DNA of 64,000 nucleotides, from assembly GCA_006386115.1 (NCBI GenBank), contig VFIW01000031.1, forward strand, positions 1 through 64,000, given 5' to 3'. The notes beneath the pieces were generated by a model. That model saw only the letters and a program-made list of their open reading frames with translations. It searched no databases and had not been told where the DNA came from. Both the position numbers and the translations under genes were made by a program. Of this stretch, positions 9,752 to 34,681 are shown in pieces (position 1 is the stretch's first letter; each line of letters opens with the position of its first letter). The DNA is from Globisporangium splendens. Taxonomy: Eukaryota; Oomycota; Peronosporomycetes; Pythiales; Pythiaceae.

Positions 9752-11344
9752 ATGAAGCGACAGCGCGTCCCCGCACTCAACAGCAGCGCCGCCGCGGTCG
9801 ACGACGACAGCAATGCGCGATTGTTCGACGTGGACGCGCTCAGCGACCTCGACGTGGCCATCACGCTGGACAAGTACGCGCACGTCGTAACAAGCGAAAC
9901 CGACAGCAGCGCTACGCACGACGTCGACGCGGGCTTTACAACACACAAGCTCGGGAACGCGACCCCAGACACAGTATCTATGGCGGATGCCACCAGCGCA
10001 ATGACCAACGAGCTCCAGAGAGCGCCCCAGAAGCGCGCCAAGTTCTCGGCTGAGGTGCGCAAGGCGAGACACCGCGACCGCATGCAGCGCGTGCGCATGG
10101 CCGAGAAGAGAGACATCGAGGTGAAGCGCGTGGAGATGCAGGCGCTCGAAGTGGAGCTCGAGAGCTCCATCGTCGGGTTCCGCGAGCAGGACGACGAGGA
10201 GGAAGCCGATATTGACGACGACGACGACACCGAGATCATTGGCTTGGATCAGCTGATTGCGCGCGACCATGCTTACAAGTCATCGAACGATGCAAAGAAC
10301 CCGAAAGCGTTGCAGCGCAAGTACGTCAACCTCGTGCTACAGCAGGACCAGATCAAGAAGGAGAACGCGAGCCTCGTCGGCCGCATCCAGGACTTTGAGA
10401 AGTACGAAAAGCTCGTCACCACCGAGTTCGAGCGCTTGCAGGGTCCGAGCCCTCGCCACAATGTCCCCATGCTTGGCGTTGGTGATACTCCACCAACTAG
10501 CATTGGTCTCGTCGATGGTCCAGCAGCCACGACAGGGGGAGGAGGGTACTGGCTCACGTTTACAGAGAATGAGTATCTGTATTTTGAGCCGCTCAAGTGG
10601 ACCATGTGCCAGGAGATCGCGCGGCAATCGTACAACCACATGCTCAACCTGCAGCGCGGGCTACCGCATCCGACCATACCGACCGAGTTCCTGGGATGGA
10701 AAGTCTCGTACGCTACGCTCCGTAAACAAACCGCGCCGAGCCAAAGCGTCCAGATGCAGCACCGATCCGTGAAGCGCATCAACCCGTTCTTGCTCGGCAC
10801 GCTCGAGAAAATCACGATCGACAGCATAGGTGACAACACGTGGAGGATCGTGAACTCGTCCGAATTGTATCGGCAAATCTACAAGACCAACATGCTGTCC
10901 CGCGTGCTTCAAGTCGTGGATGACCACACGTCGGTGCTGCTGCGAACGTACCCCGACGAGCGGCAAGTGATGCGCGCGCGGTTTCTCAGTTTGATCTCGA
11001 AAATGGAGGACCAGGTCACTGATGCAGCCGGGAACCCGCAGCGGCGCATCTCCGTGCTTCTGTCCGTGCTGGACCCGGACGAGTGGCTCAAGACAGGGAC
11101 TCGTGAGAGCACAAGCGGCGCGTCATCAGGCAACAGCCACATCAACTGGATCAAGGACGGCGTCGCGTATTTCTCGTTCACAGACGTGAACAATGGTCAG
11201 GAAGTCGAGATGGAGTACGGCGGGTACCTGGACGTGGCGAGCGAAGAGGTGCAGCCTACCGTGATGCGGAATATGCTCGAAGCCATTATTCGGTTCGAAC
11301 GCGGCGCGACACGAACCGATGCCATGCTGATCACATCCTCGTGA
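9752..11344 (+). CDS. bZIP-like / START-like paralogue 1
   Basis: A 530-residue putative nuclear DNA-binding regulator. Residues ~103-140 form a basic region plus short heptad helix (RKARHRDRMQRVRMAEKR). Where canonical bZIPs have the invariant Asn this copy has Arg110, and the following RYRxKK is altered to RVRMAE, so normal bZIP DNA contact is doubtful. An acidic stretch (~163-180) follows, then a second coiled coil with the conserved QKxNLVLQQDQIKKENASL pattern. From ~269 to the end is the family's large C-terminal domain, with LGWKV and LYRQIYKTNMLSRVLQVVDD matching the other copies. By pattern it resembles a START-type ligand pocket; that is inference. It is the first and one of the most divergent members of the array. 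Confidence 0.75.
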   Translation: MKRQRVPALNSSAAAVDDDSNARLFDVDALSDLDVAITLDKYAHVVTSETDSSATHDVDAGFTTHKLGNATPDTVSMADATSAMTNELQRAPQKRAKFSAEVRKARHRDRMQRVRMAEKRDIEVKRVEMQALEVELESSIVGFREQDDEEEADIDDDDDTEIIGLDQLIARDHAYKSSNDAKNPKALQRKYVNLVLQQDQIKKENASLVGRIQDFEKYEKLVTTEFERLQGPSPRHNVPMLGVGDTPPTSIGLVDGPAATTGGGGYWLTFTENEYLYFEPLKWTMCQEIARQSYNHMLNLQRGLPHPTIPTEFLGWKVSYATLRKQTAPSQSVQMQHRSVKRINPFLLGTLEKITIDSIGDNTWRIVNSSELYRQIYKTNMLSRVLQVVDDHTSVLLRTYPDERQVMRARFLSLISKMEDQVTDAAGNPQRRISVLLSVLDPDEWLKTGTRESTSGASSGNSHINWIKDGVAYFSFTDVNNGQEVEMEYGGYLDVASEEVQPTVMRNMLEAIIRFERGATRTDAMLITSS

Positions 11345-13124
11345 GCTAAGACGTCAAGCTGATTTCCCTCAGACCACGATTATGTCTGAGCCACCATTTT
11401 TGCTGTTTTGCTGGTGAAACCCAAGTATTTACTGCCCGCACGTGCTCACAGACGACTCTCCAAGTACAATAGACCCCATTGCCTTGACTGAACCTGGCGC
11501 CACTTTTCAAGTGCGGCTTGAACGAAATAAACAAACGAAGCCCCCAGACAAGTCCGAACGACCCACACAGTGACGCTGGTGAACTCGGCCACCGGACTCA
11601 AAGGCAGGCATCAGGCGCTCGAGTGCGGCAACCGAGTCCAGTACTGTGACAATTTAGAATTCATCCGACCTATCGAGCGCGCTCATTGCATTGCATTTGG
11701 AGCAGAAAGTGAGGCGTTTGTATAAGAGGGCGACGTTCGCATTGAATTTGAACGAGTTTCGTCATCGCTATCGCTTGAGGACTGAAGGTCCATAGTTTAA
11801 ACTGCCGTGCGTGTGGTTCGAAAATGCATCTCAATGAGCTCACCCAAATGAAGCGGTACGCTTGTCAGGCGTAGCGTTATTGGACCGCCTTCTAAAAATC
11901 GGAAGGCGCCGGCTGAGTGTGGCACACTTGCCTGACGAGGGAGAAGTCATTTCTAGCGTCCCAGTAACGTCATCACGGTCACTTTGTGCATCTTCTTGAG
12001 ATTTGCTTGCTGATCTGAAGCAAATCATACCGGGATCAGAAACCGGACTTCTATTCAAAAGAAACCTTCAACACGTATCCATCGAAATTGCGGTGTATAG
12101 TAGATCTAAACACCGATGTCAGACGGCACTCGTGCATGTCTGCATCCGATCCGCATGAGCTGATTGTTACCAACGCAAAAGCATCAGGCATTACTTCGTG
12201 AATGAGTGCATGAAGGTCTCAGCTTGTTTCACTGAATGCTGTCACTCGCTCGCCTCTGCGTCGAAAATGGTCGAGACTAGCGAAAGCGCCGACGATTATA
12301 GAAATGGCACTCCTCCAAAGCGTGTCGCTGTTCATAGCTCTTCAGAGCGTGCGATTTTCTTTCTCACGAAGAAAGCCTGTCTTCACTGCAGACAGCCCTT
12401 TAACGTCTGTTTGGATCCACAGATCCAGTCCTGATATGCAGCTCATGTCTCTTCTCGTGTTGATGCGGAGGCAACCGCCTGTCAGATCCCCAAAGGCACT
12501 CAGGGATCAGCTTGACCTGAGCCATTGGACCATTTTGCAAAGTGTGCTCAGCGACATACCGAAACGTGAAATTTATCACGATCATATGTCGGATGCGTAC
12601 CCAGGTCCGAAATCACATTGTTATAGCGGCCAGTCATTACACACCCCAACCTTGGTGGTTGACCTGATCATACGCAAGTCGCACATAAAACCACAAGACG
12701 CACGCAATGCAAAGGAGAACACGAGAGCGCCTCTGCCCGCCTTCAGCGTAATCAATCATTTGGCCGCTGAATTCTTTCTCTCTCTCTCTCTCCTCTATTA
12801 TGTCTGCAGACAGGTTCAGAATTCGGCCAGCCACGCTCGCTTCAACGCATCTGCTTCAGTCCCAGCAGCTCCATGTGTCTTTTGGACAACCAAGCGCAAC
12901 ACTGAGTGCTCTAGGACCTGAGCCAACCGAACTCAAGGCCATTCCAGAAAGTTGCACGAATGAAATGGCAGTTGTTGATTCTGGGCTACATAGCAAAGGG
13001 ACGGCCATGCAACAGAGAGTAAGCAAGTGCAGCTTGGATGTATGTGGATGTTGGCCGATGTTGACCTCATCGACATCGAAGAACCTTCCACGATTGACCA
13101 GCGACTGGGTGCCGTCGTGAAGGC
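11345..13124. other. Intergenic, 1.8 kb, no gene recognised
   Basis: I find no frame with a convincing domain. The stretch 13040-13124 may contain the decayed N-terminal acidic part of the next paralogue. A TC microsatellite lies at 12775-12793. Confidence 0.45.
12775..12793. repeat. (TC)n microsatellite
   Basis: About nine TC dinucleotides in a row. Confidence 0.9.
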
Positions 13125-14318
13125 TGCGTCGAAGTGAAAGCGCCACAGCGTTATCGTCGCATGATCCCGTGTGCGTCAGATAGCGTCATTTGCAGCCATG
13201 CGCGCCGAAGAAACAGCGCTATGCAACCAGCTCGATCACATGCTGATTGGGTACGACCGCCAGCATCGAAGTATCCAAGCCGATGAGAGAGAACAGAATT
13301 GTGCTCTCATCGATAGAGCACAACAAGCTTACATAGAACAGGTCGCGATGCAGCAGGCCGTTATCCGCGAGAACGAGAAACTGCAGCATCGCATCGAAGA
13401 TCTTGCCAAGTTCAGCCGTCTGATCGAGATTGAGCAGAGGCGAGAGATGAAGGACAGCACAGGTGCCAGTGGTACCAACATGCCTCGTGAATTGGACAAG
13501 AAGAACCAGACTGTAGATTCGATGCCGTCAGATGGAAAAGCAAGGCGGCTGTATTTCGATGGCGATGAAGATCCTTTCTATTATGAACTCCTCTCGGAGC
13601 AAAGCTGCACGCCTCGATGCAACTCGTGTACCAGCAGATGATCGATCTGTACCAGGACTTCTCTCACGGCCACATCGCGGTTCACGAAACCCAGTGTCTC
13701 GGATGGAAAGTGCAGCGGCCGTTGTATGTGTCTACGGAGCAGGAGAAACGTCTACTTCGGTTCCAATTCACAAAGATGATTCACTGCATCGACGACACGA
13801 TGGAGGATAGCGTCCATCGCACATGAGTTGCGTTCCACAATCCTGCGCTCTACGCCAAAATCTGTAGCACTGTTATTGTTGCACGAGTTGTGCAGCGGGT
13901 GAACGAAAAAGTGTCGGTGCTGATCCAGAACGCGCCGAGTCTGGACGTCGCCACGAACATTCGGTACTTCAACATGCTGGTCAAGATGACTGGTCGAAAT
14001 GCAAAGAACGAGCGCGTCGTAGCACTTGTACAAACAATCGTGAACCCAGCCCAAACTCCAAAAACCGCAGACTTCCTTGAACGACACGGGATCCAACAAC
14101 CGCAGGATATCGAATGGATGAAGCACGGATTCTCGTTCCTGTTGCTCACCGAGGCACATCTCGACGCCGCCACGGGCGAGCGGATCCTCCAGCTCCACTA
14201 CGGCACGCACTTTGAGTGCGTCAGTGAAGACCACGCGCGCCATCTGATGATCGAGGTGCTCGGGCTGGCCTCGCGATGGGAGCGCATGGTGCTGCCCAAC
14301 TGCCACCTGACGTTCTAG
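13125..14318 (+). pseudogene. bZIP-like / START-like paralogue 2, broken
   Basis: Three frames hold consecutive parts of a family member. The segment from 13171 carries the zipper (MRAEETALCNQLDHML) and second coiled coil, ending at 13641 just inside the C-terminal domain (DPFYYELLSEQ). The frame at ~13617-13826 continues with LGWKVQRPLYV and FTKMIHCIDD. A third segment, ~13830-14318, supplies the end of the domain (VNEKVSVLIQNAPS, then RWERMVLPNCHLTF). The basic region around 13135-13165 is out of frame. At least two frameshifts make this a pseudogene; it is closest to paralogues 1 and 3. Confidence 0.75.
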
Positions 14319-15247: not shown

Positions 15248-16582
15248 ATGCCTTCCCTTGCCGCCATGCAGCAGCGCCAAGCCCCCAAGACCGACTCGTC
15301 CATGTCGACGTCGCCCGTGAGCCTCGGCTCCGAGGCGCACTGGATCCTCTCGACCGCCGGCAAGTGGACCGAGGAAGACGAGAAGGAGTGGAAGCGCGAG
15401 CAGCACCGCGAAAACATGGTCTACTTCCGCCTCAAGAAGAAAGAGCAGCGCTCGCAGATGAAGAGTCAGCACCGCATGCTCGAAGCGCAGCTCAAGCAGA
15501 AACTTGCGATCCAGCGTGCAGCAGCAGCGCGTGGCGCACGTCTGGCCGCTGCACCGTGGTCGGCCAACTACAGTGAATACGGAGCTCCCAGCGCGGCCAC
15601 TGCTGATAAAACATTTGCGATGCAGCCATTACAGCAATCGCTGACCGACCTCGTAACTGAGCGCGAAGCGCTGCGCAACGAGAATCTCTCGCTCGAGAAG
15701 CGGATCGCCGAATACACCAAGCTGCAGAAACTGATTCACAAAGAAGGCGAGCTGCTGTCGTCCGATGAAGAAGTCGACCCGCGACGACCAGGCGAATCGC
15801 CACTAAAGAAGTTCACTGCTAGTGCTGCTGGGCAGCAAGACAAGGGCTCGTTCGTTTCGCTCGAAGGTGGCAGTCCGTCGTTCTACTACGAACCGATCTC
15901 AAGCGACGACTGTCAGCAAGCACTGAGCAATTATCGTCAACGGTTCGCGGCCGACAACGCCAGATTCACAGCGGGGCACATGTTTGGGTGGAAACTAGAG
16001 CGCTGTCTTAAAAAGGACGCCGCGACGGGAGCGTTGTTCTCTCGAGTATGGTACACGAAGCGCATCCACTGTCCGAATGGCAATGCTGCGGCACTGGTCG
16101 ACAAACTCGACGCAGATTCTTGGAACGTATTGGTCACACCCGAGCTGTTCAGCCGCATCCACCGCACAGACTACGTGTCCAAGACGCTGCAGTGCGTGAG
16201 CGACGACGCGTACATCATGATCCGCAATTACTTCGAGCCGAGTTTCCAGATCAACATTCGGTATTTGAATCTGGTGACACGGTGCGACGAGGTGAATGCG
16301 CTCGGCCAGCGCACCGTGATGCAGTACCTGCTTATCCCAGACTCAAACGCCAACCGCCTTGCGCGCGAGGCCGACCCGCGCGCAGACGTCAAGTGGATCG
16401 TCGATGGCGGCGCGTACATGGCGATCGTCCAGGTGGACGCCGAGACGGTCGAGGTCGTGTACGACCATTTTTCGTACTGCATGAACCAGCAGCAGGCGGA
16501 CTTCCTGATGATCGACTGGGGCAACATCGTCGTGCGATGGGAGCAAATGGTACATCCATCGCGCATGTTGACACAAGTATAG
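15248..16582 (+). CDS. bZIP-like / START-like paralogue 3
   Basis: The start at 15248 (MPSLAAMQQRQAP) is chosen as the first ATG before the conserved part; the frame is open further upstream but has no ATG there. 444 residues. The basic region (KREQHRENMVYFRLKKKEQR, Asn at residue 56) keeps the bZIP Asn and the KKK cluster. It is followed by a heptad helix (MLEAQLKQKL) and a second coiled coil (TEREALRNENLSLEKRIAEYTKL). The C-terminal domain starts around residue 205 (SPSFYYEPISSDDC) and includes FGWKLERCLKK, ELFSRIHRTDYVSKTLQCVSDD and the closing RWEQMVHPSRML. No introns are needed. Likely a nuclear transcription factor; target and ligand are unknown. Confidence 0.8.
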   Translation: MPSLAAMQQRQAPKTDSSMSTSPVSLGSEAHWILSTAGKWTEEDEKEWKREQHRENMVYFRLKKKEQRSQMKSQHRMLEAQLKQKLAIQRAAAARGARLAAAPWSANYSEYGAPSAATADKTFAMQPLQQSLTDLVTEREALRNENLSLEKRIAEYTKLQKLIHKEGELLSSDEEVDPRRPGESPLKKFTASAAGQQDKGSFVSLEGGSPSFYYEPISSDDCQQALSNYRQRFAADNARFTAGHMFGWKLERCLKKDAATGALFSRVWYTKRIHCPNGNAAALVDKLDADSWNVLVTPELFSRIHRTDYVSKTLQCVSDDAYIMIRNYFEPSFQINIRYLNLVTRCDEVNALGQRTVMQYLLIPDSNANRLAREADPRADVKWIVDGGAYMAIVQVDAETVEVVYDHFSYCMNQQQADFLMIDWGNIVVRWEQMVHPSRMLTQV

Positions 16583-17648
16583 TGTGCATATGCGGAGTAA
16601 TAAATTGTAGATATAGCGATCCGCGAAAAAGAAGGAAACGGCAGGAGGCTGGCCACAAGTAGTAAATAGTTATGTAATAAACGCAATACTGGCATCGGGA
16701 TTATGTGAAAACGTGAGGATAGCGGCGCATACGTGATCCAAAGTATGGAAAGTCATGCTCGCGTCTACGCAAAGTCAACTCCTTAACCGCCAAGCGCATG
16801 GACCAGTCTCCATATTCTGAATACCTGCCTCAACGATGCATGCGTTTCGTAAACCTACTCGAGTACAAATCTTGTGAGAGCGGTTCCGTGTGGAACGACT
16901 GCCAAGTCCGAGTTTGTGCGAGTGGGTGCGGTTCCACTGTGTCAACCTTGAGACCATGCTCTTCAGAACTGACACGACCAGACAGACAGCGTTCTTGATG
17001 GGACGCAGCGAGTGCTTTCGGGTGAGTCCCTCGTTTAGACAGAGGGACGCAAGCAACATACAGTTCACTGACCTCAAGGGCATCGCAAGGGCATTCGAAA
17101 TGGCCAATGTATCTTTCCAAAACGTGGAAGATCCTCTGATCCGACCAACCGGAGCCACAAACGAGATGGTCCGGCTTGGATACCTGTAATTGATCAGTCA
17201 GCAACAGCAGACTTGGTGGTTTTGAGCTATAGATACTGCGTATTTAACAATATGTGGATTTAGACGATCTTGATGAGCTGGTCATCATCCGCCAGCCAAC
17301 TGAACCGATTTCGAGTCAGTGCGACGCTATGTGGGAGCAGATCTGGAAGACGGGGATGAGCGGCTCCGCACTGGACGGCCATAATCTGTTGATGGCGGTC
17401 TCTGATGACGGCCCTGTCTGTTGCGGTCGTTTTGCGAGCGCGTACTGTAAGGAGCCGATGGATCGATGATGGTCGCAGACACGATTTTGCCGGCACCGCT
17501 GCACGTGAATCAGGCTGCTTGTGGCGCGTGAGTTACGCCCTCGCACGCAGCGTTAAGGAGGGTGTCAACTCAACCGGACCAGAGTGGCACTAGCAAATGG
17601 TCAAGCGCGTCGTCGCCATAGCTGCGCGTGAGTCACGCAGTCGTCGAC
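16583..17648. other. Intergenic between paralogues 3 and 4
   Basis: Several short frames (for example 16890-17189 on the plus strand) have no family similarity or domain I recognise. I see no gene. Confidence 0.5.
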
Positions 17649-18848
17649 ATGGAGGGTGAGGAGCTCGCGGCCGAGACGACCACCGCAGCCGAGGAAGACG
17701 AGAAGCGGATCCTGAGTAGACGAAGGCATCGGGACAACATGATCCGGTATCGGTGAAAGAAAAAGATCACGGTCGAGGACATGCGCGTCGCGGAGCGGTT
17801 CCTGACTGCGCAGCTGCAGAGTATGCTCCAGTTGCATGCGTCACAGTCGCAAACGTACCAATCCAGTCGAGCTGATCGTCCTGCGACGGCAATCGACGAG
17901 TACGTCGACTTGCTCATCCAGAAAGAGCACTTCCAGAATGAGAGCCATGTTCTGAGAGAGCAGTTGGATGGTGTGCACCAGCTTCATCAGACTCTTCGAG
18001 TCGAGTGCAAAGAGGAAGTTAGTGGCCGAGAGCGAGACGCAGTACGAGCGACCGCCGCGTCGCAGGACTCCGGGCAAAGCTACATCCGTATCAACTTCGT
18101 GGAGGACGAAGCGCCATTTTATTATACGCCATACACCGAGGACGAGTGCGCGGCAGTGACTCGCAAGACACGGCGACGCATTCGTCAGGCGCAATCCCAA
18201 CATTTTTCAACAATGAAGCTGTTTGACTGGGATGTGAGCATCATGCTGGCCCGGGACGACCAACACCATCAGCTATTTATTCAATACCGATTCAGGAAAA
18301 CGGTGCGAAACCCCGCGCGCAGCATCCACGAATTAGTCGACCGACAATGGGAGATTTACCATTCGCGAGAGTTGTTCCAGGAGATGCACCCTGTTCCGAT
18401 GAACACGCAGGTACTCCAGCACGTGGACGACGACACAAGCGTCGTGATGTGGGCATCACCAAACCCAGAGAAGAGCTCGAGGTACCGCCATCTTTCAGTC
18501 TACTCTCGTAGCCACTTTTACGATTCATCTGAGCGTGAGTCTCGACTGCTGGCGATCGCCGATGTCCCATTGAAAAAATTGCCCAGTGCAACACCGTTCA
18601 GTGATGCCACAACAACTTTAGTGACGGCGACGGGGGAGCAAGTGCAGTACGAGGACAGGGGCTTTTTGTATTCCCAGTTCTCGAATCGGCGGCAAGATAT
18701 CAATGGCTGCGAGATCGAAGTGGCGTGTGGAGGCCGCGCGCCATGCTTGAACGAGGAGCACGGCCGGTTCCTCATGGTCGACATCGGGAACATCATCTTG
18801 CGCCTCGAGCAAATGCTGATTCCGCCCAGAGTGCTGACGACAGAGTAA
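17649..18848 (+). pseudogene. bZIP-like / START-like paralogue 4, stop in basic region
   Basis: One continuous frame from ATG 17649 to the stop at 18848 (400 codons including both stops) is interrupted only by TGA at 17754-17756. The stop sits inside the basic region, after RRRHRDNMIRYR and before KKKITVEDM, exactly where paralogue 5 has His in RYRHKKK. The rest is well preserved: zipper (FLTAQLQSMLQLHASQSQTY), second coiled coil, and the whole C-terminal domain (APFYYTPYTEDEC, LFDWDVSIM, MNTQVLQHVDDDTSVVMW, closing LEQMLIPPRVL). This may be a very young pseudogene, a readthrough gene, a sequencing error, or a gene restarting at Met 17781 without its basic region. It is closest to paralogue 5. 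Confidence 0.75.
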
Positions 18849-18872
18849 TAGTGTAATTCTCATGAACATCAC

Positions 18873-20595: not shown

Positions 20596-22017
20596 ATGAT
20601 GCCATTCGCGCACGCGCATGATGCGTTTCGTGACGACGCCATGTCGAGCAGCAGTGGCACGGAGAGTGGACTCTCGGACTCGGTGAGTCCGGCCACGCAC
20701 TCGCAGCTGACGGCTGGCAATGAAGTCAGCGAACAAGACGCGAAATTGATGTTGCGCCGGCGACGCCACCGTGACAATATGCTCCGGTATCGGCACAAGA
20801 AGAAGGCGACGCTCGGAGAGATGAAAACCGAGGCAGCGGTGCTCTCGGCGCAGCTGCAGAGTATGCTGAGTCTGCACGCGTCCCAGTCGCAATCGTACCC
20901 ATTGCTGACCCAATTCCATCACGAGGCTCACCAAGGCGCGCTGGTGGTGCGAGGACCTGGACCAACCGCGATGGATGAATTCGTCAACGTGCTCGTTCAG
21001 AAGGAGCAACTGCAGCACGAAAATATTGATCTGAGGAACCAGTTGGAGACCGTGGAGAGGTTCCACCAAACGCTACGCGACGAATGTGAGATGGAGAGCG
21101 ACGACAGCATGGACAACGCGTCAAACAACCGAAGCGCACAGAAACCGCGCGGGGGTCGACCTCAATTACCGAGGAAATCGATCGCAGCCAAGCAGCAAGG
21201 AGGCAAGTGGATCTCGTTCCTCGACGACGAGCCGCCGTTCTACTACGTGCCGTACACTGAGGCCGAATGCCACGCTATTCTTCGTGAAACGCATGCGAAT
21301 ATGTACCGCATGCAGCTGAATGACTTGTCTCGGAGGAACAATGTGCATATCATGACGCTGTTTGACTGGACTGTGAGCCTCGTGTACGAATTCGACGAGG
21401 CCGTGCAGATGACGATGATTCGATACACGTTCCGGAAGACATTTCGGCGATCGCCTCGACGTATCGACGAGCTCGTACAGAGCGAGTGGGACATTTTGCA
21501 CGACCCGAAGTTGTATCAGAACCTCCACCGAGTGCCAGTCCGATCCAAGGTGCTGCAGCGTGTGAACGCAAACATGAGCGTCGCGATGTGGAATGCGCCG
21601 GAACCGCAGCAGAGCCTCAAGTACCGCAACGTCAGCCTTTTCTCGCGCAGCCTGTTCGAAAACCCAGAGGGGAAACGGTGTCACATGATCGGAATCTCGG
21701 CCGTCTCCTTGAAGATACCGGACAAGGACGACGATTTCGAAGACGAAACCAAGGACGAGAGCACGCAGGAGCGTCCGCTAGCACCAACCATCACCACGTC
21801 AACGGCGAATGGCGAGCTGGTCGTGTACGTTACTGGCGGGTTTCTTTACACGCTGTTCAGCCAGAGCCCTGAGAACGAAGAAGGCACAATTGACGTCGAG
21901 TTCGGTGGGTACATCCTGGTGATGACCGAAGCCCAGGGACGGTTCCTCATGGTCGAACTCGGCGGCACCTGCGTGCGCTTGGAGCAGTTGTTGTTCCCAT
22001 TCCGAGTCTTGACCTAG
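20596..22017 (+). CDS. bZIP-like / START-like paralogue 5 (best-preserved type member)
   Basis: 473 residues, single exon. The basic region at ~54-75 (RRRRHRDNMLRYRHKKKATL) has Asn61 followed by seven residues and Lys, matching the bZIP N-x7-R/K rule, with the oomycete-style MLRYRHKKK core. A short zipper follows (EAAVLSAQLQSMLSLHASQ), then a second coiled coil (~120-155: FVNVLVQKEQLQHENIDLRNQLE). The C-terminal domain (~199-473) opens with SFLDDEPPFYYVPYTEAEC and includes LFDWTVSLVYEFDE, RYTFRKTFRRSPRRIDELV, WDILHDPKLYQNLHRVPVRS, WNAPEPQQSLKYRNVSLFSR and the end GRFLMVELGGTCVRLEQ. The strand/helix order resembles START domains; this is inference. Probably nuclear. Confidence 0.85.
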   Translation: MMPFAHAHDAFRDDAMSSSSGTESGLSDSVSPATHSQLTAGNEVSEQDAKLMLRRRRHRDNMLRYRHKKKATLGEMKTEAAVLSAQLQSMLSLHASQSQSYPLLTQFHHEAHQGALVVRGPGPTAMDEFVNVLVQKEQLQHENIDLRNQLETVERFHQTLRDECEMESDDSMDNASNNRSAQKPRGGRPQLPRKSIAAKQQGGKWISFLDDEPPFYYVPYTEAECHAILRETHANMYRMQLNDLSRRNNVHIMTLFDWTVSLVYEFDEAVQMTMIRYTFRKTFRRSPRRIDELVQSEWDILHDPKLYQNLHRVPVRSKVLQRVNANMSVAMWNAPEPQQSLKYRNVSLFSRSLFENPEGKRCHMIGISAVSLKIPDKDDDFEDETKDESTQERPLAPTITTSTANGELVVYVTGGFLYTLFSQSPENEEGTIDVEFGGYILVMTEAQGRFLMVELGGTCVRLEQLLFPFRVLT

Positions 22018-22369: not shown

Positions 22370-23703
22370 ATGGTCAACGTGTTCAGCGAAGCGGTGGACG
22401 CCGACCTCGTGCGCGCGCTCGTGGACTCGGGTGCGGCCGATGCAATCGTGGCCGAGCAGAGCGCCAAGCTCCTGGAGTGGCGACAGCGGAACCGCGACAA
22501 GATGAACCGCTACCGGCGCTTCAAGCCCGAGAGCCTGAGCAGGTTGCGGCAGGAAGAAACCACGCTCGCCGCGCAATTGCAGCGCATGCTACGTCTCCGC
22601 GCGTCCTCGCATTCAGAACCTCCTCCAGTCCTCAGCTAGCTACTGTAGAAGCACGGTCAACGATGGACGACCTCATCAACGTGCTCACCCAGAAAGAGCC
22701 CATGCGGAAGGAGAACCTCGAGCTGCGGCGACAGCTCGAAAGTGTACACAAACTCTACGAGACACTGCGCGACATTTGCGAGCAGGAGAAGCGCCTACGG
22801 TCGAAAGACGCAGCAACAGCACAACACCACGCACATCATCATCGCGGCGACGTGAGTATTCGGACAACGCAACTGGATGCCAATCGGAGATTAGACGCAC
22901 GAGGGTCCTGGATGTCCTTTCTGGACGAGGAGGCTCCGTTTTTCTACGCGCCGTACACCGAAGCGGAGTGTCAGGCCGTTCTCCGTGAGACTCACGAGCA
23001 GATCTCTCGATTGCAGACGCGGTATTTGAACAAAATCTATCAGGAAAATGTGCATATTGTGAAGCATTTCGGGTGGACTGCGAATCTCATGTGTGAATAC
23101 GACGACGAGCTGAAGGTCAACATAATCGTGTTCACATTCAAGAAGACGTTTCGGAACGCTTCGCAGTCCCTCAGCGACCTCGTTGCGAGCCGCTGGAAGA
23201 GCCTGTTGACTCCAGACTCGTTCCGATCCTTCCACCGCATGCCAGTCAAGTTAAAGGTGCTGCAGACCGTGAATGAGAACATGAGCGTGGTGATGCGGAA
23301 CAACCCAGATCCTGGAGAGAGTCTTAGGTACCGCAACGTCTCGCTGTTTTCGCGCAGTGCATATGTAAATCCCCAGAGCAAACTGTGCCACATGATCGAC
23401 ATCACTGGCATCCCGTTCAAGGTGCTGGACCAAGAAATTGGTGGCAGTGAAGCTAACAGCAACGTAGAGAAGATCACAACAACCACGGCCACAACGGAGA
23501 AGGGCGAACAGATCCTATGCTTGAACGGTGGCATCCTCACGGCGCTGTTCAGCGAGGGTGAGAATGACGGAGACATCGACGTGGAGCTTTGCGGACGCAC
23601 TGCGATTCTGAACGAAGAAATGGGGCAATTCCTCTTGGTCGAGATCAGTGGCTCGTGCATACGGATCGAGCACGCGCTGTTCCCATTTCGACTGCTCACC
23701 TGA
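22370..23703 (+). pseudogene. bZIP-like / START-like paralogue 6, frameshifted
   Basis: The N-terminal part from ATG 22370 (MVNVFSEAVDADLVRALV) has the motif SGAADAIVAEQ shared with paralogues 7 and 8, then a basic region QRNRDKMNRYRRFKPES in which the Asn is replaced by Lys44, and a zipper (TTLAAQLQRMLRL). This frame stops at 22639. The second coiled coil (MDDLINVLTQKE) and the complete C-terminal domain (APFFYAPYTEAECQ to IRIEHALFPFRLLT) continue in a different frame from about 22600 to 23703. The switch lies at about 22590-22640. A tiny intron could in principle restore the frame, but a frameshift is simpler. The rest is well conserved, so the break is recent or an assembly error. Confidence 0.7.
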
Positions 23704-24470: not shown

Positions 24471-25955
24471 CTACGTTAGCACTCGGCACGGGAGCAGCAA
24501 GTGTTCGAGTCGCACGCACGTGCCTCCGAGCTCGACCATGAGGAACCGGCCCTGTGCTTCGTTCAAGATGTCGGTGCGTCCGCCAAACTCGACCTCGACG
24601 TCGCCCTCGTTGGGTCCATTTGCGAACGTCGTATACAGGAACCCGCCGTGCGTGTACACGACCTCGGGATCGTCGGCTGCTTCGTCTGCACTATTGTTGT
24701 CGTCGTGATGTGGACGGACCTGATCGTACGTTTGCAGTTGCTGCTCGCTGAAATACTTGAGCGGGATACCGGTGATCGTCACCATTTCACACGCGCGGCC
24801 ATGTGGATTCTGGTACGAGCACCGCGAAAACAGCGACACATTGCGGTATCGCGTGCTCTGCTCGGGTTCGGGTGCATTCCAGATCGCGACACTATGCACG
24901 CTCGAGATGCGCTGCAAGATCTTGGAAAACACGGGCACACGGTGCAGCATCTGGTACTGTCGCGCGTCGTGCATGATCTCCCACAGGCGCTGCGCCAGTG
25001 TGTCGATATCTTGCGTCGCGTTGCGGAACGTTTTCTTGAACTGGTACCGGATCATCGTCACGCCAATGACGTCGTCGACTTCGAAGACTAGACTCGCTGC
25101 CCAGTCGAAGAGCGAGACCACTTGCGTGCTCCCATCACACATACCCGCGTCGTACGTGGTCTGCAACGTGAACACGTTCTGGAGTGTGTTCGTGAGGATC
25201 GCGATAGCTTCTTGCTCGGAAAACGGCTCGTAGTAGAACGGGACGTCGTTCTCGAGAAACGTGACCCATACGCCATGGTCGCTTCCTCTGTGTCGCTGAT
25301 CGCCGCTGCTACTACTTCCAGGACTACTCTCGCCGCTGTCGTTACCGCTGTTCTGATTCCTCTTGTGCTCTTTCATCGACAGAACGAGCATCCGCTCCCG
25401 CTTGGCGTCCTCGTCGTTGTGATGATCCTGCAGCAGCGCGCGGAGCTTCTGGTAATCCTCGAGCTGCTTCCGCAACGCGACGTTCTCGTGGTGCAAGTGC
25501 TCCTTCTGCGCGAGCACGTGCACAAACCTGCTCACTGGCGTCGGCGCAGGCTCCATCAGCGCCAATAATGAGGTCTGTGCATGCACTCTACTGGGTGAAC
25601 TAAGGAAGGTTGCATCCTGATCGCGACACTGCGCTTGCGCCTTGTGCGCGTGCAGCAGCTGCTGGAGCTTGGCGGCCAGTTGCTGCTCCTCGGACTGCAT
25701 CTCGCCAAAGGAGCTCTTCTTTCGGCGCCGGTAGCGGATCATGCTCTCGCGGTGCTTGGTCTTGCGCGCGAGCGCCTTGGCGGCTTGCTCGGCCACGATC
25801 GCGTCGGCCGAGCCCGAGTCCAGGAGCTTGCGCACGAGCTCCGTGTCGACCTGGAGCTCGTCGTCGTCGCCATTGTCAGCTGGCGCCGCGCGCCGAGGCG
25901 GCGAGTGGCGGTGATTGTTGCCGCCGGCGATTCCGTTGTCGCCGAGCGCGTTCAT
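24471..25955 (-). CDS. bZIP-like / START-like paralogue 7
   Basis: The ATG at 25955 (MNALGDNGIAGG) is chosen; the frame is open for a further 11 codons without an ATG. 494 residues. An N-terminal motif TELVRKLLDSGSADAIVAEQ is shared with paralogues 6 and 8. The basic region KTKHRESMIRYRRRKKSS has Ser71 at the invariant Asn position. A zipper (EEQQLAAKLQQLLHAHKA) and a second coiled coil (FVHVLAQKEHLHHENVALR) follow. The C-terminal domain runs from VTFLENDVPFYYEPFSEQE to GRFLMVELGGTCVRLEHLL and keeps LFDWAASLVFEVDD, FKKTFRNATQDIDTLAQ and WNAPEPEQSTRYRNVSLFSR. The END-side sequence TCVRLE is shared with paralogue 5. First of three consecutive minus-strand copies. Confidence 0.85.
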   Translation of the reverse strand: MNALGDNGIAGGNNHRHSPPRRAAPADNGDDDELQVDTELVRKLLDSGSADAIVAEQAAKALARKTKHRESMIRYRRRKKSSFGEMQSEEQQLAAKLQQLLHAHKAQAQCRDQDATFLSSPSRVHAQTSLLALMEPAPTPVSRFVHVLAQKEHLHHENVALRKQLEDYQKLRALLQDHHNDEDAKRERMLVLSMKEHKRNQNSGNDSGESSPGSSSSGDQRHRGSDHGVWVTFLENDVPFYYEPFSEQEAIAILTNTLQNVFTLQTTYDAGMCDGSTQVVSLFDWAASLVFEVDDVIGVTMIRYQFKKTFRNATQDIDTLAQRLWEIMHDARQYQMLHRVPVFSKILQRISSVHSVAIWNAPEPEQSTRYRNVSLFSRCSYQNPHGRACEMVTITGIPLKYFSEQQLQTYDQVRPHHDDNNSADEAADDPEVVYTHGGFLYTTFANGPNEGDVEVEFGGRTDILNEAQGRFLMVELGGTCVRLEHLLLPCRVLT

Positions 25956-28595: not shown

Positions 28596-30008
28596 TCAGC
28601 CTTCGTCCGAGCTACTCGGCAGCACACGGAATGGCAGCAGCAAGTTCTCGAGTCGAAGCAACGTCGTCCCGAGGTCGACCATGTAGAATCGTCCGTGATC
28701 TTCATCGAGGATCTGGATTTTGCCTCCATACTCGACGTCGATTGCACTGGGTTCCAGCTGGTTGGCGCGATAATGTGTATAAATGAAGCCATTGCTCGTA
28801 AACCACATCACAGGGTCTTCTTCAGATGCTTGATCTGACGCAGTACCATCACCACCATCTTCGCTACCGCCATCACTGCATGAAGGTCGCGTGGAAGTGG
28901 AACATAGGGGTAATCCTTTCGGCGAAAGCGCCAAGACGGCGAAGAGCTGGCCGTCTCGACCCGACGGATCTCTGTACGATCCCCGCGAGTGAAGCCCCAG
29001 CACGCGCACCTTGAGACTTTGGTCTGCGGACGGTGCGTTCCAGACGCGAAGACTCATCTGGTCCGCATCGAAGGACTGCATGACCCTCGACTTGATCTTC
29101 CCGCTGTGGATCTCGTCGTACAATTTCGGGTCGTGGAAGACGCGCCACTCCAGGTCCACAAGTTCTTCGAGGCTGCGCATGGGATTCCGGAACGTCTTCG
29201 CGAATGTATACCGGAGCATGTTGACCTGCTGGTTCTCGTCCCATTCAAACAGGAGTCGCACAGTCCAATCGAAGAGCGACACGACCTGCGCGCGCGACTG
29301 AAATGAAGGCGTCTGGTTTTGTATCTGGAATTCAAAGATTCGCTGCCTCATCTTGTTCACGAGCACCCGGGATTCCTGTTCGTCGTATGGGATATAGAAA
29401 AACGGATTGTCGTCGTCCTCGTCAAGCTGCACCCAATACCCGTTCGCGCCGTCATTGTCTGAGGCGCGGTTTGCAACCTGGCCACTTGGAGCTTTGCTTT
29501 CATCTTCTGTGTTTTCGCTACGTGGCGATCTTGCTGCTATGGACGGCCGCATAAACTCGGCATCGATGTTGCTACTCGCGAACAACTCGGATTCTTCTCG
29601 GAGCATTTGCTGGAACTTCGTGAATGCCGTCCATTGTTTGCGCAACGCAGTGTTTTCTTGGCGCAGTTGCTCCTTCTCGGTCACGAGATCCACGAACGCA
29701 TTGAGCTTCGTTGCAATCTCTGGAGACTGCGCTCGGGCAGAAGATGCGGCCTCGCTGGTCTGTGATGCATGCGCATGCACCGTCGCATGCAGCTGCGCCA
29801 GCAGCAACCGTTCTTCGTGCTGCATCTCCTCGATACTCACTTTCTTCCGGTGGCGATACCGCGCCATGTTGACGCGCCGCCGTTGCCGCCGGGCCAGCAG
29901 CGTCCTTGCAGCCTGCTCCGCGACGATCTCCTCCGCCGAACCGGTTGCGAGCAACTCGCGCACAAGCTCTGGATCCACGATCACCTCCGAATTATCGTCG
30001 CTGTCCAT
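28596..30008 (-). CDS. bZIP-like / START-like paralogue 8
   Basis: 470 residues from ATG 30008. The N-terminus has PELVRELLATGSAEEIVAEQ, the motif shared with paralogues 6 and 7. The basic region RRQRRRVNMARYRHRKKVS keeps Asn47. The zipper (ERLLLAQLHATVHAHASQ) and second coiled coil (FVDLVTEKEQLRQENTALRK) are standard for the family. The C-terminal domain starts around residue 200 (NPFFYIPYDEQES) and includes LFDWTVRLLFEWDE, FAKTFRNPMRSLEELVDLEW, WNAPSADQSLKVRVLGLHSR and GRFYMVDLGTTLLRLENLL. An acidic, Ser-rich insert (SDGGSEDGGDGT) interrupts the domain before its last third. The leader is CT-rich. Confidence 0.85.
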   Translation of the reverse strand: MDSDDNSEVIVDPELVRELLATGSAEEIVAEQAARTLLARRQRRRVNMARYRHRKKVSIEEMQHEERLLLAQLHATVHAHASQTSEAASSARAQSPEIATKLNAFVDLVTEKEQLRQENTALRKQWTAFTKFQQMLREESELFASSNIDAEFMRPSIAARSPRSENTEDESKAPSGQVANRASDNDGANGYWVQLDEDDDNPFFYIPYDEQESRVLVNKMRQRIFEFQIQNQTPSFQSRAQVVSLFDWTVRLLFEWDENQQVNMLRYTFAKTFRNPMRSLEELVDLEWRVFHDPKLYDEIHSGKIKSRVMQSFDADQMSLRVWNAPSADQSLKVRVLGLHSRGSYRDPSGRDGQLFAVLALSPKGLPLCSTSTRPSCSDGGSEDGGDGTASDQASEEDPVMWFTSNGFIYTHYRANQLEPSAIDVEYGGKIQILDEDHGRFYMVDLGTTLLRLENLLLPFRVLPSSSDEG

Positions 30009-30081: not shown

Positions 30082-30411
30082 TCAGACTGACGCGCTGTGC
30101 GGTGTAGCAGCAAGGCGCATGCGAGACGAGGACGAGAACAGACAGAGAGAGAGAGTCCACGTCTGCCGTTTTTTCTGTCTCTGGCGGATTTGGCTCAGCG
30201 ACTGCTCTTCCTCGTCGAAGATCGCGCAATGACCAGCACGAAAGCCAATCAGCGCGTTGATCAGTGAGATGAATCCCCAAATGTACGCCAACGCACTGAT
30301 CGCACATCCCTGGGAAAGAAAAAATGTGTACAGTGCACGAGCGAGCGTCTCAGAAACCTTTGTAAACGCCATGTGGACAACGTCATCCACCCAGAGTGTG
30401 TACACTTGCAT
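30082..30411 (-). CDS. Possible small membrane-protein exon, doubtful
   Basis: A frame on the minus strand contains a hydrophobic helix (CAISALAYIWGFISLINALIG) followed by an acidic segment (AIFDEEEQ). A pyrimidine-rich tract ending in CAG immediately precedes it, so it could be a 3' exon; a 48-nt GT...AG stretch upstream is in phase. A further coding-looking stretch (GMIPWKKPGHLYFMRHKDG) lies in another frame near 30520-30590 and could be an upstream exon. I cannot identify the family. It may equally be the promoter region of paralogue 8. Confidence 0.2.
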   Translation of the reverse strand: MQVYTLWVDDVVHMAFTKVSETLARALYTFFLSQGCAISALAYIWGFISLINALIGFRAGHCAIFDEEEQSLSQIRQRQKKRQTWTLSLCLFSSSSRMRLAATPHSASV

Positions 30412-31242
30412 TGTCGCTCCCCATCGCGGCGGAACAGCGGCGGAAGAGAGAAGAGGAGCGCGAGGTGGGAAGACGATCGGACGCTCAAGTCATCCATCAC
30501 CCCATCTTTATGGCGCATAAAGTACAAGTGGCCCGGCTTTTTCCACGGGATCATGCCAATATCAATCGCCAGGAGCTCCGTTGCAGACGATGGGCTGACG
30601 AGCGAGCTCCTCGAAGTTGCGCTGTGTATCCAGGGAATAATATCTTTTGCGAAGATCTTGCACACTCGCGGCCGCCCTTACCGGCGACTGATCTGACCGC
30701 TTGATTGCACATTGCATTAAGCACAGCGAGCCGTGGCCAGTCGATGGGTAGAGGTACGGTTCTCTGACGTAGCGTCATGATGATTGCTTATGCTGCTGGC
30801 CTTTCTGAAACGGATCCAACCTCAGTCAGCGCCGCAAGACCCGGCAATTTGCGCTGTGGGAATTCGCGTCTGATGCAGTTCTAACTGCATATCGAATTGA
30901 GCTCCTCGCGCAGATCTCAAAACGAGTTCCTTTGGAGGATTGCAACGTAGTGCTGTGAAGAAGAATGACGTCACGCACTGGGGATGGCACTAAGATAACG
31001 ATGGCAAGCTCATATTAAAACCTTAGAAGCCGAGTGGGATCTCACTTAATCTTGCTTCTGTTTGCAAGGCATCAGTGCCTCGCTTCCTGAACACCTCGCA
31101 CAGTACCAAAAGACCCGTCTCTGAAATCAACCTGCTTCTTTAGAGGAGGCGGCACTGCCTATTCATTGCACCAACATTGCCTTGCATGCGCTTGGGAACT
31201 CTACTCTAGTAGGTCCTAATGGGATCGAATCTGTGCGCTCGG
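30412..31242. other. Intergenic between paralogues 8 and 9
   Basis: Apart from the possible exon noted around 30520-30590, I see no gene, RNA or repeat here. Confidence 0.4.
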
Positions 31243-32715
31243 TCATGTCGACAAGTTGATCCCTCGATCGTCACGACTCTCGTATTGCGCTTCTGTGCTA
31301 GCATGACTCGCTGGGCTTCGCAAACTCAAGTCGTTCCTTCCTGAGGCATATTCAGTAGAGCTGCGCGTCTGAGAATCACAAGAAGCAGTGCCCGCCGTGA
31401 GCACTCGAAAAGGCGAAAACAGGTTCTCCATACAAATCAGCGAACTGCCGACTTCGACCATGAAAAACTGCCCAGCCTCTTCGCTCACGAGTTGCATACG
31501 ACCGCCGTAGTCGACGTTGACATCACCTGGAGTTTCGCCTTCTCTATAAGACGTGTAAATGAACCTGCCGTGGGTGTACACGACTTGCTCGCCAGGCGAT
31601 GTATGCTCGCTTTGTCGTCACTCAGTGCCAGATCTCGGGTGAGGCTCTCCACCACCTTGAAGGGAGGATATTGCCTTGGACGGCACGCCAGTGATCGTGA
31701 CAACCTAGCACTCTCTCCCCTCTGGGTCGTAATATGCACCTCGCGAGTAAATGGTCATGGTCCGGTACTTGAACTCGCCTCTCCCGACCGGAGGGTTGGC
31801 GACCACGACGCTCAGTGTGTCGCCTGCAAATATCTGAAGCGTCTGGGAGTTTATAAAGACCGAGAAGATACTGTCAAACGCATCAGGCGCGCGCAGTACT
31901 CGCCACTCACCTGTCACCAATTCGTTGATCGAGCGCGGCAGATTCCGGAATGACTTGGCGAAGCTGAACCGCATCATCTGCATCTGCAGTTCGTGATCCC
32001 GCTCAAATATGAGACTCGATACCCAGTCGAAGAGGGCGACAGAGTGGCCGCGTCCATGGCGCAAATTCTGTAATTGGAACGCGTAGACTCGCTCGAGCGT
32101 CGTGTTCGCGAACGCAACACACTCTTGCTCAGTGTACGATACAAAGTACAGCGGAGGCTCATTTGTGAGAAACTGGACCCAGGAGCCCTGATCGACATCT
32201 TCTCTTCCGCTTGAATGCGAAGCACTCTCGCTCTCGTTCTTGTCTCGTGCTCGTAGCGTGCTATTATCCCGGGATTCAATGCTGTAAATGAGTTGCTCGC
32301 AAATGGCGTCGTGGAACCGATAGTACTTGTCGATTCGGCGGCGTAACGACAGCTGCTCGGCATGCAGAGCCTCTCTCTGAACCAGCAGGTCTACCAATTC
32401 ATCTTGCTGTGTTGGTTTTCCCAAACATGGCGTTTGCTTGAATAGCGTCAGCAGCTTCTGCAACGAGACCGTCAGTGCGCGCTCCTGGGCTTTCATGTCC
32501 GCGAGCGTCACTTTCTTCTTGGGGCTGGCTCGTCGCAGCGAATGCTGGAATGGAGAGTGGCTTTTACCTGCGCGACGAGGACTGCGACGCGCAGCTGAGC
32601 ACTCCGTTCCCTCCATCATAGGCGGTGTGTTGACTGCTTTTCGAAGCTCTGCTCGGTTCAGACGGAAGCACATCGTCAATAATATCGGATCCCATTGACT
32701 CGGTGGTTTTGTCAC
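31243..32715 (-). pseudogene. bZIP-like / START-like paralogue 9, two in-frame stops
   Basis: One frame runs the full length from 32715 to 31243 but contains TAG at 31705-31707 and TGA at 31618-31620, both within the C-terminal domain. Family features are clear: a zipper after PKKKVTLADMKAQERALTV, a second coiled coil (ELVDLLVQREALHAEQLSLR), VQFLTNEPPLYFVSYTEQEC, LFDWVSSLIFERDHE, FAKSFRNLPRSINELV, and the end GQFFMVEVGSSLICMENLF. The basic region is eroded (HSLRRASPKKK) and lacks the Asn and RYR core. After the usual end there is an extra ~45-residue Ser-rich tail. It is divergently placed to paralogue 10. Confidence 0.75.
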
Positions 32716-33274
32716 TCCAAGCAGAAATGACTGAATGCTGAAAAGTTATGACAATTGTGAATCAATGTTTGCATCAATTTTGCTTCGAGACTGAGCGAAG
32801 AAATACCCCAAAGTCAGCATATTTTTGCCACGGTTGGGCAAAATTGATGCATCGTGCCCTATTTTTGAGAAGGAGTGCTTTCGAAGACCTGCATTCAATA
32901 TTGCAATATTGACACTGACAATTGTTTGTCCTCGACATCAAAACGAAATTACTTTGCTTTTTTGACACTTCCTTGCACAGCGAGTTTCTGCTGCCGAATG
33001 TGCTTCGACAGTCGAAAGACGTATTTTTGTGAATCATATCCACTTCATTATGCTCAATGATAACAATGAATAACCCGTACAACATTTCATACTACAATAG
33101 TAATGAAACATATTCAACTAACTGCAACACATCTATATAAATGAATATATCGGACAAGTTGGCTTCAATATGATCCGTCCCTAATTGCGACGAAGCGACG
33201 TCCCTCTTGCGTACGTAACATGCCCACCATCTCTTTTTTTTTCTCGGTACTGCCACTTGGAGAACGCCAGCCTC
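32716..33274. other. Divergent promoter region between paralogues 9 and 10
   Basis: This 559-bp AT-rich spacer separates two outward-facing family members and must hold both promoters. I recognise no specific element. Confidence 0.5.
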
Positions 33275-34681
33275 ATGAGCGCCGCCTTCGCTGGCGGTTC
33301 GCGCGCGCGTCCTGACGCCGACACTGCTGCAGGCATGCCGATCCCTTCTGGGTGCAGCAACGAGCCGCGTGGAGCTGCTCATGCCGCAGCAGCAGACGCA
33401 ACAGACGACGCGCTGCGAGAGACGCAGCGACGCCGCCACCGCGAGAAGATCACGCGGTACCGCCACAAGAAGAAGGCTACGATAGGCGCCATGAAGCTGC
33501 AGGAGCAGGTGCTGTGCGCACAGCTCACGAGCATGCTCGAGCTGCACATGGCGCACTCGCAGTCGTACCAGCCGCTGCAGCTCTCGCCCCAGCGGCGACA
33601 AAGAGGAGAACGTGATGAGAATGCGACCGATGCGCTTCAAGCCCAGAGACGCGCTTGGGGCGCACGAAGTCCGACGGCGATGGACAACTTTGTGCGCGTG
33701 CTCACGGAGAAAAAGAAGCTGCAGCGTGAACAAAGCGTGCTGCGCAAACAGGTCGACACATTCCACGCCTTCCACGACGCTGTGCACCAAACCATCCACG
33801 ACGAGCTCATTGAACACAAGGACGGCCGCTCTCTACGGCATGCAAGAGGTACACGTGGTAGTAAAGACGATGGCAGCGACGGCCAGCAACTTGACAGTGC
33901 AGACGGATGCTGGGTAACATTTGCCGCGCACGAGGCGCCGTTCCACTATGTGCCGTATACGCCGCAGGAGTGCTACGCATCGGTCACGCAAACCATGCGG
34001 CAGGTGTTTGATTTCCAGAAGCAGGCACTCGGTGGCGCTCAAGTTGACAATCTCCACATGATCAAGCTCTTCGACTGGACCGCGACGCTGCAGCTGGAAT
34101 GGGACGACGCGCTGCAGATGACGATGATCCGGTACCAGTTCACGAAAACGTTCCGGAACCCCGCGCGCGCGCTCGAGCAGGTCGTCGACGCCGAGTGGGC
34201 GATCCTGCACGACCCCAAGCTGTACCAGCAGATCCACTGCGTGCCTGTGTGTTCCCACGTGCTGCAGCGTGTGGGCGACGACATCAGCGTCGTGCTCCTG
34301 AACGCGCCGGACCCCGAGCAAACACTCAAGTTCCGCAGCATCTCGATATTCTCACGCAATGCGTATGAGACGCCACTCGGGAAGAAGGGGTACCTGGTGA
34401 CCATGGCCAAGCAGCGAAGGCGCGATCTCAAGAGTCAGCTGACCTCGGCGGGCGAGCGAGTCGTGTACACCTCGGGCGGGTTCCTGCACACGATCTTCAC
34501 GTCCCATGTCTCCCAGGATGACGGCGCACAGTACATCGAGGTCGAGTATGGCGGCTGTGTGCCCGTGCTCAGCGAAGCGCAGGGACGCTTTCTCATGGCC
34601 GACCTCGGCAGCGCGTGCATCCGCCTCGAGAGCATGCTGTTCCCATTCCGAGTCCTGAGAAGCGACACGGAAGGTGGATAA
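33275..34681 (+). CDS. bZIP-like / START-like paralogue 10
   Basis: The start at ATG 33275 (MSAAFAGGSRARPD) is chosen; the frame is open another 30 codons upstream without an ATG. 468 residues. The basic region RRRHREKITRYRHKKKAT has Lys58 in place of the invariant Asn. The zipper (QVLCAQLTSMLELHMAHSQ) is closest to paralogues 4 and 5. The second coiled coil is FVRVLTEKKKLQREQSVLRK. The C-terminal domain starts near ~215 (APFHYVPYTPQEC) with LFDWTATLQLEWDD, FTKTFRNPARALEQVV, LNAPDPEQTLKFRSISIFSR and GRFLMADLGSACIRLESML. It is the last member of the array; the next gene is an unrelated transporter. Confidence 0.85.
   Translation: MSAAFAGGSRARPDADTAAGMPIPSGCSNEPRGAAHAAAADATDDALRETQRRRHREKITRYRHKKKATIGAMKLQEQVLCAQLTSMLELHMAHSQSYQPLQLSPQRRQRGERDENATDALQAQRRAWGARSPTAMDNFVRVLTEKKKLQREQSVLRKQVDTFHAFHDAVHQTIHDELIEHKDGRSLRHARGTRGSKDDGSDGQQLDSADGCWVTFAAHEAPFHYVPYTPQECYASVTQTMRQVFDFQKQALGGAQVDNLHMIKLFDWTATLQLEWDDALQMTMIRYQFTKTFRNPARALEQVVDAEWAILHDPKLYQQIHCVPVCSHVLQRVGDDISVVLLNAPDPEQTLKFRSISIFSRNAYETPLGKKGYLVTMAKQRRRDLKSQLTSAGERVVYTSGGFLHTIFTSHVSQDDGAQYIEVEYGGCVPVLSEAQGRFLMADLGSACIRLESMLFPFRVLRSDTEGG

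What the first reader, a model, noticed from the sequence alone, without database searches (positions are those of the whole stretch)
9752..34681. Ten-member tandem array of bZIP-like proteins with a shared C-terminal domain
Seen: ten copies over 25 kb with the same order (basic region, short zipper, second coiled coil, ~270-residue C-terminal domain with FYY-PY-E-EC, LFDW, KTFRN, LHRVPVxSxVLQ, GRFLMVxLG..xRLE). Six are intact and four broken. Inference: a locally expanding family of regulators in birth-and-death evolution. Local bursts of this size for a transcription-factor family are unusual in oomycetes.
Basis: partly seen in the sequence, partly recalled or inferred. Interest (0 to 1): 0.8.

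Follow-up and report, generated by a model that had tools for sequence, protein, structure and literature searches.

The report
Tandem lipid-sensor-like bZIP-START regulator genes
A crop-infecting water mould carries ten neighbouring genes whose proteins join a modified DNA-gripping zipper to a predicted lipid-binding pocket, a design like one known in plant regulators, which may let lipids switch genes on or off.

The parts
9752..11344 (+). Copy W1, intact, 530 aa; close orthologues in G. ultimum and two unnamed sources
   Evidence: G. ultimum P0016: START region 177/183 identical, basic+zipper 53/56; P0017, P0018
13165..14315 (+). Copy W2, broken (three pieces in two frames, stops)
15248..16582 (+). 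Copy W3, intact, 444 aa, divergent (22-26% to the others)
17601..18848 (+). Copy W4, broken: stop inside the basic region; coiled coil + C-terminal domain open from 17781 (355 aa)
20596..22017 (+). Copy W5, intact, 473 aa; the copy that was modelled
20722..20802 (+). W5 basic-region helix (residues 43-69; RRRRHRDNMLRYRHKKK)
20812..20886 (+). W5 short zipper helix (residues 73-97)
20968..21126 (+). W5 second coiled coil (residues 125-177)
21205..21993 (+). W5 predicted START domain (residues 204-466)
22412..23703 (+). Copy W6, broken: basic region out of frame with the rest; coiled coil + C-terminal domain open from 22663 (346 aa; identical to the end of public model FI667_g7996 partial)
24471..25955 (-). 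Copy W7, intact, 494 aa; G. ultimum orthologue P0002 89% identical
28596..30008 (-). Copy W8, intact, 470 aa (Arg, not His, at the Asn position)
31396..32673 (-). Copy W9, broken: degraded basic region, stops in the last third
33275..34681 (+). Copy W10, intact, 468 aa

Best explanation
The array is an old cluster of bZIP-START regulator genes. SHOWN by sequence or prediction: the intact proteins have a bZIP-derived basic helix (mostly His for the conserved Asn), a short zipper, a loop, a second coiled coil and a C-terminal domain predicted to have the START lipid-binding fold (one copy and one sister were modelled; the others follow by alignment); homology to an Asn-type bZIP sister family with the same layout is strong; for the best-sampled copy the basic region, coiled coil and START domain are the conserved parts between species. 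INFERRED: the protein dimerises through its zippers, binds DNA with an altered basic region, and the START pocket takes a lipid that changes dimer level, stability or activity, as reported for plant HD-Zip III/IV proteins. Paralogues would differ in DNA site and ligand. Copies W4 and W6, which keep coil + START but have no in-frame basic region, are either recent pseudogenes or non-binding partners.
Against: No Pfam START match at E<=1 in any of ten proteins scanned (three clade members, seven relatives); none of the eight window copies scanned reaches Pfam's bZIP cut-off (only W7 is listed, 14.8 of 27.6 bits). The fold is a prediction from 23 sequences; whole-chain pTM 0.56 (sister 0.52). W7 vs G. 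ultimum shows no domain contrast (linker 36/37 identical, START 164/185). No expression, DNA-binding or lipid-binding data. A Trp nearly invariant in the last helix of the sister family is kept in only 2 of 22 clade rows, so the pocket may be altered.
Confidence: 0.68

Rival explanations
1. The proteins are DNA-binding bZIP-like regulators whose START-fold domain no longer binds lipid and serves only as a dimerisation or partner-docking surface.
For: START sequence signature is undetectable by Pfam; the insert before the last two strands differs strongly between copies; the last-helix Trp of the sister family is kept in only 2 of 22 clade rows.
Against: The fold is predicted in two families from separate alignments, and for W1 it is the most conserved part between species.
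Confidence: 0.22
2. They are not transcription factors any more: the change at the Asn position abolishes DNA binding and they act as coiled-coil lipid-transfer or scaffold proteins.
For: The Asn is a key base contact of bZIPs (recalled); His, Arg or Gln stand there in 19 of 19 clade rows; Pfam bZIP score is under the cut-off.
Against: Basic region plus zipper is 91-95% identical between species for W7 and W1, about as constrained as START; other oomycete classes with Cys, Arg or Val there are published bZIP candidates, most of them judged not to be pseudogenes from transcripts (PMC4046829).
Confidence: 0.12
3. Recent local expansion in birth-and-death evolution.
For: Four of ten copies are broken; close one-to-one orthologues were found for only two copies.
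Against: 19-43% identity and no near-identical DNA found; W1 and W7 split from the rest before G. splendens and G. ultimum parted. Orthologue counts are limited by an incomplete protein search, which returned only three of the six intact copies themselves.
Confidence: 0.1
4. Transposon-derived or non-functional repeat sequence.
For: An ORF with an RNase H-like motif (motif recalled; no Pfam match at E<=0.001) lies upstream at 4818-6785; W5 has a sub-threshold rve_3 match (14.4 of 26.5 bits).
Against: No transposon family over its cut-off in the eight copies scanned, one locus only by three queries, cross-species conservation.
Confidence: 0.02

Closest known systems
Plant HD-Zip class III and IV transcription factors
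   Same: Order DNA-binding domain, zipper (zipper-loop-zipper in PDF2/ATML1), START domain; START lipid binding affects dimer level and turnover (PMC10126025, passages).
   Different: Homeodomain instead of a bZIP basic region; sequences were not compared directly; lipid binding not shown here.
Novel oomycete bZIP classes of Ye et al. 2013, PMC4046829
   Same: Oomycete-expanded bZIP candidates with the basic-region Asn replaced, mostly intronless (48 of 71), partly in tandem (parts 1-2 of 6 read; passages).
   Different: Their classes are N-R, C-R, R-R, V-R, N-K and 'other'; H-R is not named in the parts read. They state no extra functional domain in 71 candidates except one PAS domain, whereas a START fold is predicted here. 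Supplementary tables were not seen.
Sister Asn-type bZIP-START array at G000:C128:327-347 kb (FI667_g8810, g8812, g8813, g8815 among its genes)
   Same: Same layout, predicted START fold in the one member modelled, tandem array of seven ORFs.
   Different: Asn kept in 7 of 7; first zipper positions N-R-L-L-L in 6 of 7 and N-R-T-L-L in 1 of 7.
Parmales START proteins that also contain transcription-factor domains (PMC10328945)
   Same: Stramenopiles with START domains in multi-domain proteins, transcription factors included (two passages).
   Different: Which DNA-binding domain was not seen; no sequence compared.

Membership tests
bZIP transcription factors | Basic region N-x7-R/K | tested here: not met
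   His in 17 of 19 readable clade rows, Arg (W8) and Gln (P0014) in one each. The Arg that follows the seven-residue gap was required by the pattern used; the alignment shows it in those 19 rows. In broken copies W4 shows H and W6 shows N.
bZIP transcription factors | Leucine (or bulky hydrophobic) heptads starting nine residues after the basic Arg | tested here: inconclusive
   Mostly M-L-M or M-L-L; W1 and its three orthologues K-L-S; W3 M-L-K; W8 M-L-T.
bZIP transcription factors | Pfam bZIP score above curated cut-off | tested here: not met
   PF00170 14.8 bits of 27.6 for W7, not listed for the other seven window copies scanned; P0010 15.0, P0002 13.6. Relatives reach 25.9; 4 of 31 carry a precomputed bZIP Pfam label.
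bZIP transcription factors | Common descent with bZIP proteins | tested here: met
   hhalign E 1.2e-22 to the Asn-type sisters over the full length; sister profile matches BACH1/GCN4.
bZIP transcription factors | Sequence-specific DNA binding | not testable with these tools
   -
START domain | Helix-grip fold with START topology | tested here: met
START domain | Sequence match to the Pfam START model | tested here: not met
   Not listed at E<=1 for ten proteins nor at E<=0.1 for eight window copies.
START domain | Lipid or sterol binding | not testable with these tools
   -
HD-Zip III/IV | Homeodomain | tested here: not met
   No homeodomain match for eight copies at E<=0.1 nor for ten proteins at E<=1 (P0016 has a weak HALZ zipper row, E 0.24, under its cut-off).
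HD-Zip III/IV | Zipper followed by START domain | tested here: met
   Helices 73-97 and 125-177, then the START fold: an analogy of layout, not membership.

The most novel reading that the evidence does not exclude
These genes are a set of intracellular lipid receptors that act directly on DNA in sterol-auxotrophic oomycetes: the START pocket binds host-derived sterols (or another lipid) and gates a re-coded bZIP, which would make the family the missing link between sterol uptake and growth or spore formation, invented independently of plant HD-Zip START and animal nuclear receptors.
Probability: 0.12. Interest if true: 0.92.

Novelty: new variant of a known kind. Interest (0 to 1): 0.66.

Why it matters
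Plants are known for joining a START lipid pocket to a DNA-binding zipper protein. Here a similar design is predicted on a bZIP scaffold in oomycetes, in a family with at least two tandem arrays in one genome. Phytophthora and Pythium-type oomycetes cannot make sterols yet respond to them with growth and oospore formation, and insight into how they sense them is called rudimentary (PMC8211186, passages and section 6). A bZIP-START family gives that question concrete, purifiable candidates. It also suggests that part of the published oomycete bZIP expansion may carry an unrecognised ligand-type domain.

Tried and rejected
M96 lead: I recalled that such oomycete proteins are sometimes labelled 'M96 mating-specific'.

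Sequence-only searches for the C-terminal domain gave nothing: Pfam, NCBIfam (three weak single-member hits), PDB sequences (one coiled-coil hit at E 0.25), plasmid records (no match). MATH_2, rve_3, LemA and similar Pfam rows were under their cut-offs and, but for MATH_2 in both W1 and P0016, differ from protein to protein.

Other bZIPs of the genome: eight of the 20 places (loci L001-L008) were tested with the clade profile; best E 0.0035, in a basic-region stretch, no C-terminal match over it.

An initiator-like motif upstream of the ORFs: TCAYTYY within 250 bp in 3 of 9 copies against 63 of 510 background pieces; not informative.

Splicing as an explanation for W4 and W6: looked at by eye only, no consensus intron seen; the public model of W6 (P0005) does not contain the basic region in its own frame.

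Paper searches for a prior report, judged from listings except where a paper is cited: bZIP/oomycete/Phytophthora/tandem/'START domain', four of five terms (100 papers, 20 listed, none of the 20 with both bZIP and 'START domain' counts above zero); 'START-like domain'+Phytophthora+bZIP; 'START domain'+oomycete+'transcription factor'+sterol; bZIP+'START domain'+stramenopile; 'START domain'+Phytophthora+'leucine zipper' (plant papers by title); 'StAR-related lipid'+bZIP+oomycete. The library holds only open-licence papers.

Full report
WHAT THE WINDOW IS. A database protein called FI667_g7996 of Globisporangium splendens is 100% identical to the open part of copy W6 (346 of 346 residues) and lies on a contig of 437,699 bases. 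The genome here has 53,310,241 bases in 195 contigs; the published G. splendens rgcb-1 draft has 53.3 Mb in 197 scaffolds (PMC7163027, abstract start in a listing). The window is therefore G. splendens, an oomycete pathogen of vegetable crops.

THE OBSERVATION. Ten copies lie between 9752 and 34681. A profile built from nine of them finds all ten in the six-frame translation and nothing else in the window (15 of 1,790 ORFs at E<=0.01). The tenth, at 13165-14315, was not in the profile and is found in three pieces. All 36 of 36 pairs among the nine match, at 19-43% identity. Six are intact intronless frames (444-530 aa); four are broken. Three own-genome protein searches with three different copies found 12, 10 and 10 places, every one of them in this array. 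These are single-sequence searches, so a distant member elsewhere can be missed, and in fact a sister family is.

THE BASIC REGION IS A DERIVED bZIP. A search with the W7 basic region found weak matches outside the array, the best at C128, C31 and C159 (E 0.001-0.06). Fetching C128 showed seven related ORFs at 327-347 kb with the same layout; one has a near-identical copy on C31, whose neighbour gene is also near-identical by eye, so probably the other allele. The window profile finds all eight ORFs (E 1e-17 to 5e-10 in that small set), and profile-profile comparison joins the families over 365 columns, from basic region to C-terminus (probability 99.5, E 1.2e-22). Relatives outside the clade have Asn in 37 of 37 rows; the sister profile matches BACH1 (E 8e-4) and GCN4 (E 0.009) among PDB sequences, with ordinary coiled coils further down; their Pfam scores (up to 25.9 bits) stay under the cut-off of 27.6 in my scan, although 4 of 31 carry a precomputed bZIP label. 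In the window clade the Asn is His in 17 of 19 rows, Arg in W8 and Gln in P0014. The first zipper positions read mostly M-L-M or M-L-L; in the 37 relatives they are L-L-L in 18, T-, M- or I-L-L in 18 and T-L-A in one.

AGE AND EVOLUTION. On a tree of 60 proteins the window clade (23 rows) is one side of a branch with support 100/100 and a long stem. The tool warns of several long branches, and forks among W4-W10 are mostly unresolved. W1 and W7 have close G. ultimum orthologues (P0016, P0002); the splits between most other copies are much deeper. In the array the best repeat of 60 nt or more found is 82% alike over 76 nt. So the array is old. The four broken copies and the few orthologues found fit some gene death, but orthologue counts are weak evidence: the protein searches scored a capped candidate list (7,989; 7,994), 4,614 candidates, and returned only three of the six intact copies themselves (W1, W5, W10). 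G. polare's two have consecutive locus tags (Gpo141_00009870 and 9871), which suggests a cluster there too. The sister family reaches [Pythium] brassicae, Lagenidium giganteum and Phytophthora pseudosyringae (31 proteins). One sister query matches 54 places on 18 contigs of the genome at E<=0.01, a count that includes exons, fragments, likely allelic contigs, this window and a few coil-only matches.

SELECTION. Between W1 and its G. ultimum orthologue, basic region plus zipper is 53/56 identical, coil 45/48, START 177/183 and 63/64, but the N-terminus 68/90, loop 28/39, linker 21/31 and an insert 9/16. The more distant P0018 shows a like contrast (80% basic, 64-68% START, 17-36% loop, linker and N-terminus). 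W7 against P0002 does not: its linker is 36/37 and START 164/185. Third-position GC is 0.67-0.78 in the six intact copies and 0.64-0.69 in the three broken ones measured, an overlapping and weak hint of relaxed constraint.

MECHANISM. The layout, DNA-binding helix, zipper, loop, second zipper, START, resembles plant HD-Zip IV proteins, in which START ligands (very-long-chain ceramides for ATML1 and PDF2) protect the protein from turnover and keep up the dimer level, while START activity of the class III protein PHB favours dimerisation (PMC10126025, passages). I propose the same logic here: dimer through the zippers, DNA contact by the altered basic region, lipid in the START pocket setting dimer level or activity. 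Every step after the fold is inference. The ligand is unknown. Sterols are an attractive guess because Phytophthora and Pythium species cannot make sterols but respond to them with growth and oospore formation, and their sterol sensors are unknown (PMC8211186, passages and section 6); that review names membrane SSD proteins and the word 'transcription' occurs 0 times. Ceramides or fatty acids are as likely. W4 and W6, which keep an open coil + START but no in-frame basic region, could be fresh pseudogenes or natural non-binding partners; I cannot tell.

AGAINST KNOWN WORK. Ye et al. 2013 (PMC4046829; parts 1 and 2 of 6 and passages read) already report expanded oomycete bZIP candidates with the Asn replaced, many inferred tandem duplications and stage-specific expression in P. 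sojae. They state that, except for one PAS domain, no extra functional domain was predicted in 71 candidates. The START fold and the H-R class are what this analysis adds; six paper searches, judged mostly from listings, showed no report of START on oomycete bZIPs in the held library. Parmales, also stramenopiles, have START-domain proteins that contain transcription-factor domains (PMC10328945, passages), so such fusions in stramenopiles are not wholly unprecedented. One Phytophthora zoospore proteome paper mentions two START proteins as lipid-related, with no bZIP in the passage (PMC12223298, one passage).

VERDICT. Its interest lies in the architecture: a re-coded bZIP joined to a predicted lipid-binding START domain.

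Noticed in passing
window 24471-25955 (-), 28596-30008 (-); P0002, P0004, P0006-P0009, P0014: A conserved N-terminal motif just before the basic region (VD-x-ELVR-x-L-x-SGSADAIVAEQAAKAL) in nine clade members; DNA of this stretch is 82% alike between broken W6 and W7, the highest of the repeats found in the array. Possibly an activation or degradation motif, or a gene-conversion trace.
   Followed up: partly
L051-L053 (G000:C128:327-347 kb): Sister array of seven Asn-type bZIP-START ORFs; four related proteins (P0023, P0024, P0027, P0031) share a contig length of 27,505 bases, which suggests that the array exists in another species.
   Followed up: yes
L067 (G000:C137:246501-254000): Two inverted, apparently identical copies of a bZIP-START gene a few kb apart, one lacking its N-terminal part, with a third member between them.
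   Followed up: partly
L004, L006, L007: Other bZIPs of the genome carry C-terminal regions that look like SnoaL/NTF2-type pockets by eye; not tested.
   Followed up: no
L055 (G000:C159:181-191 kb): Three neighbouring ORFs with an RAKRYRAKKK-like basic stretch and a shared C-terminal part by eye: another bZIP-like cluster.
   Followed up: no
window 2707-4188 (-): ORF with a Crinkler N-terminal domain (PF20147, E 6.8e-22).
   Followed up: no
window 46563-63544: Four of the ten flank ORFs scanned have a putative mannosyltransferase domain (PF11051): a second clustered family in the window.
   Followed up: no
last helix of the C-terminal domain: A6 first-row W475 versus the clade rows of A3: A Trp nearly invariant in the sister family is Leu in 14, Phe in 4, Met in 1, Ile in 1 and Trp in 2 (W3, P0018) of 22 clade rows. 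In HD-Zip IV a Trp of the fourth START helix is needed for full ligand binding; equivalence not tested.
   Followed up: no
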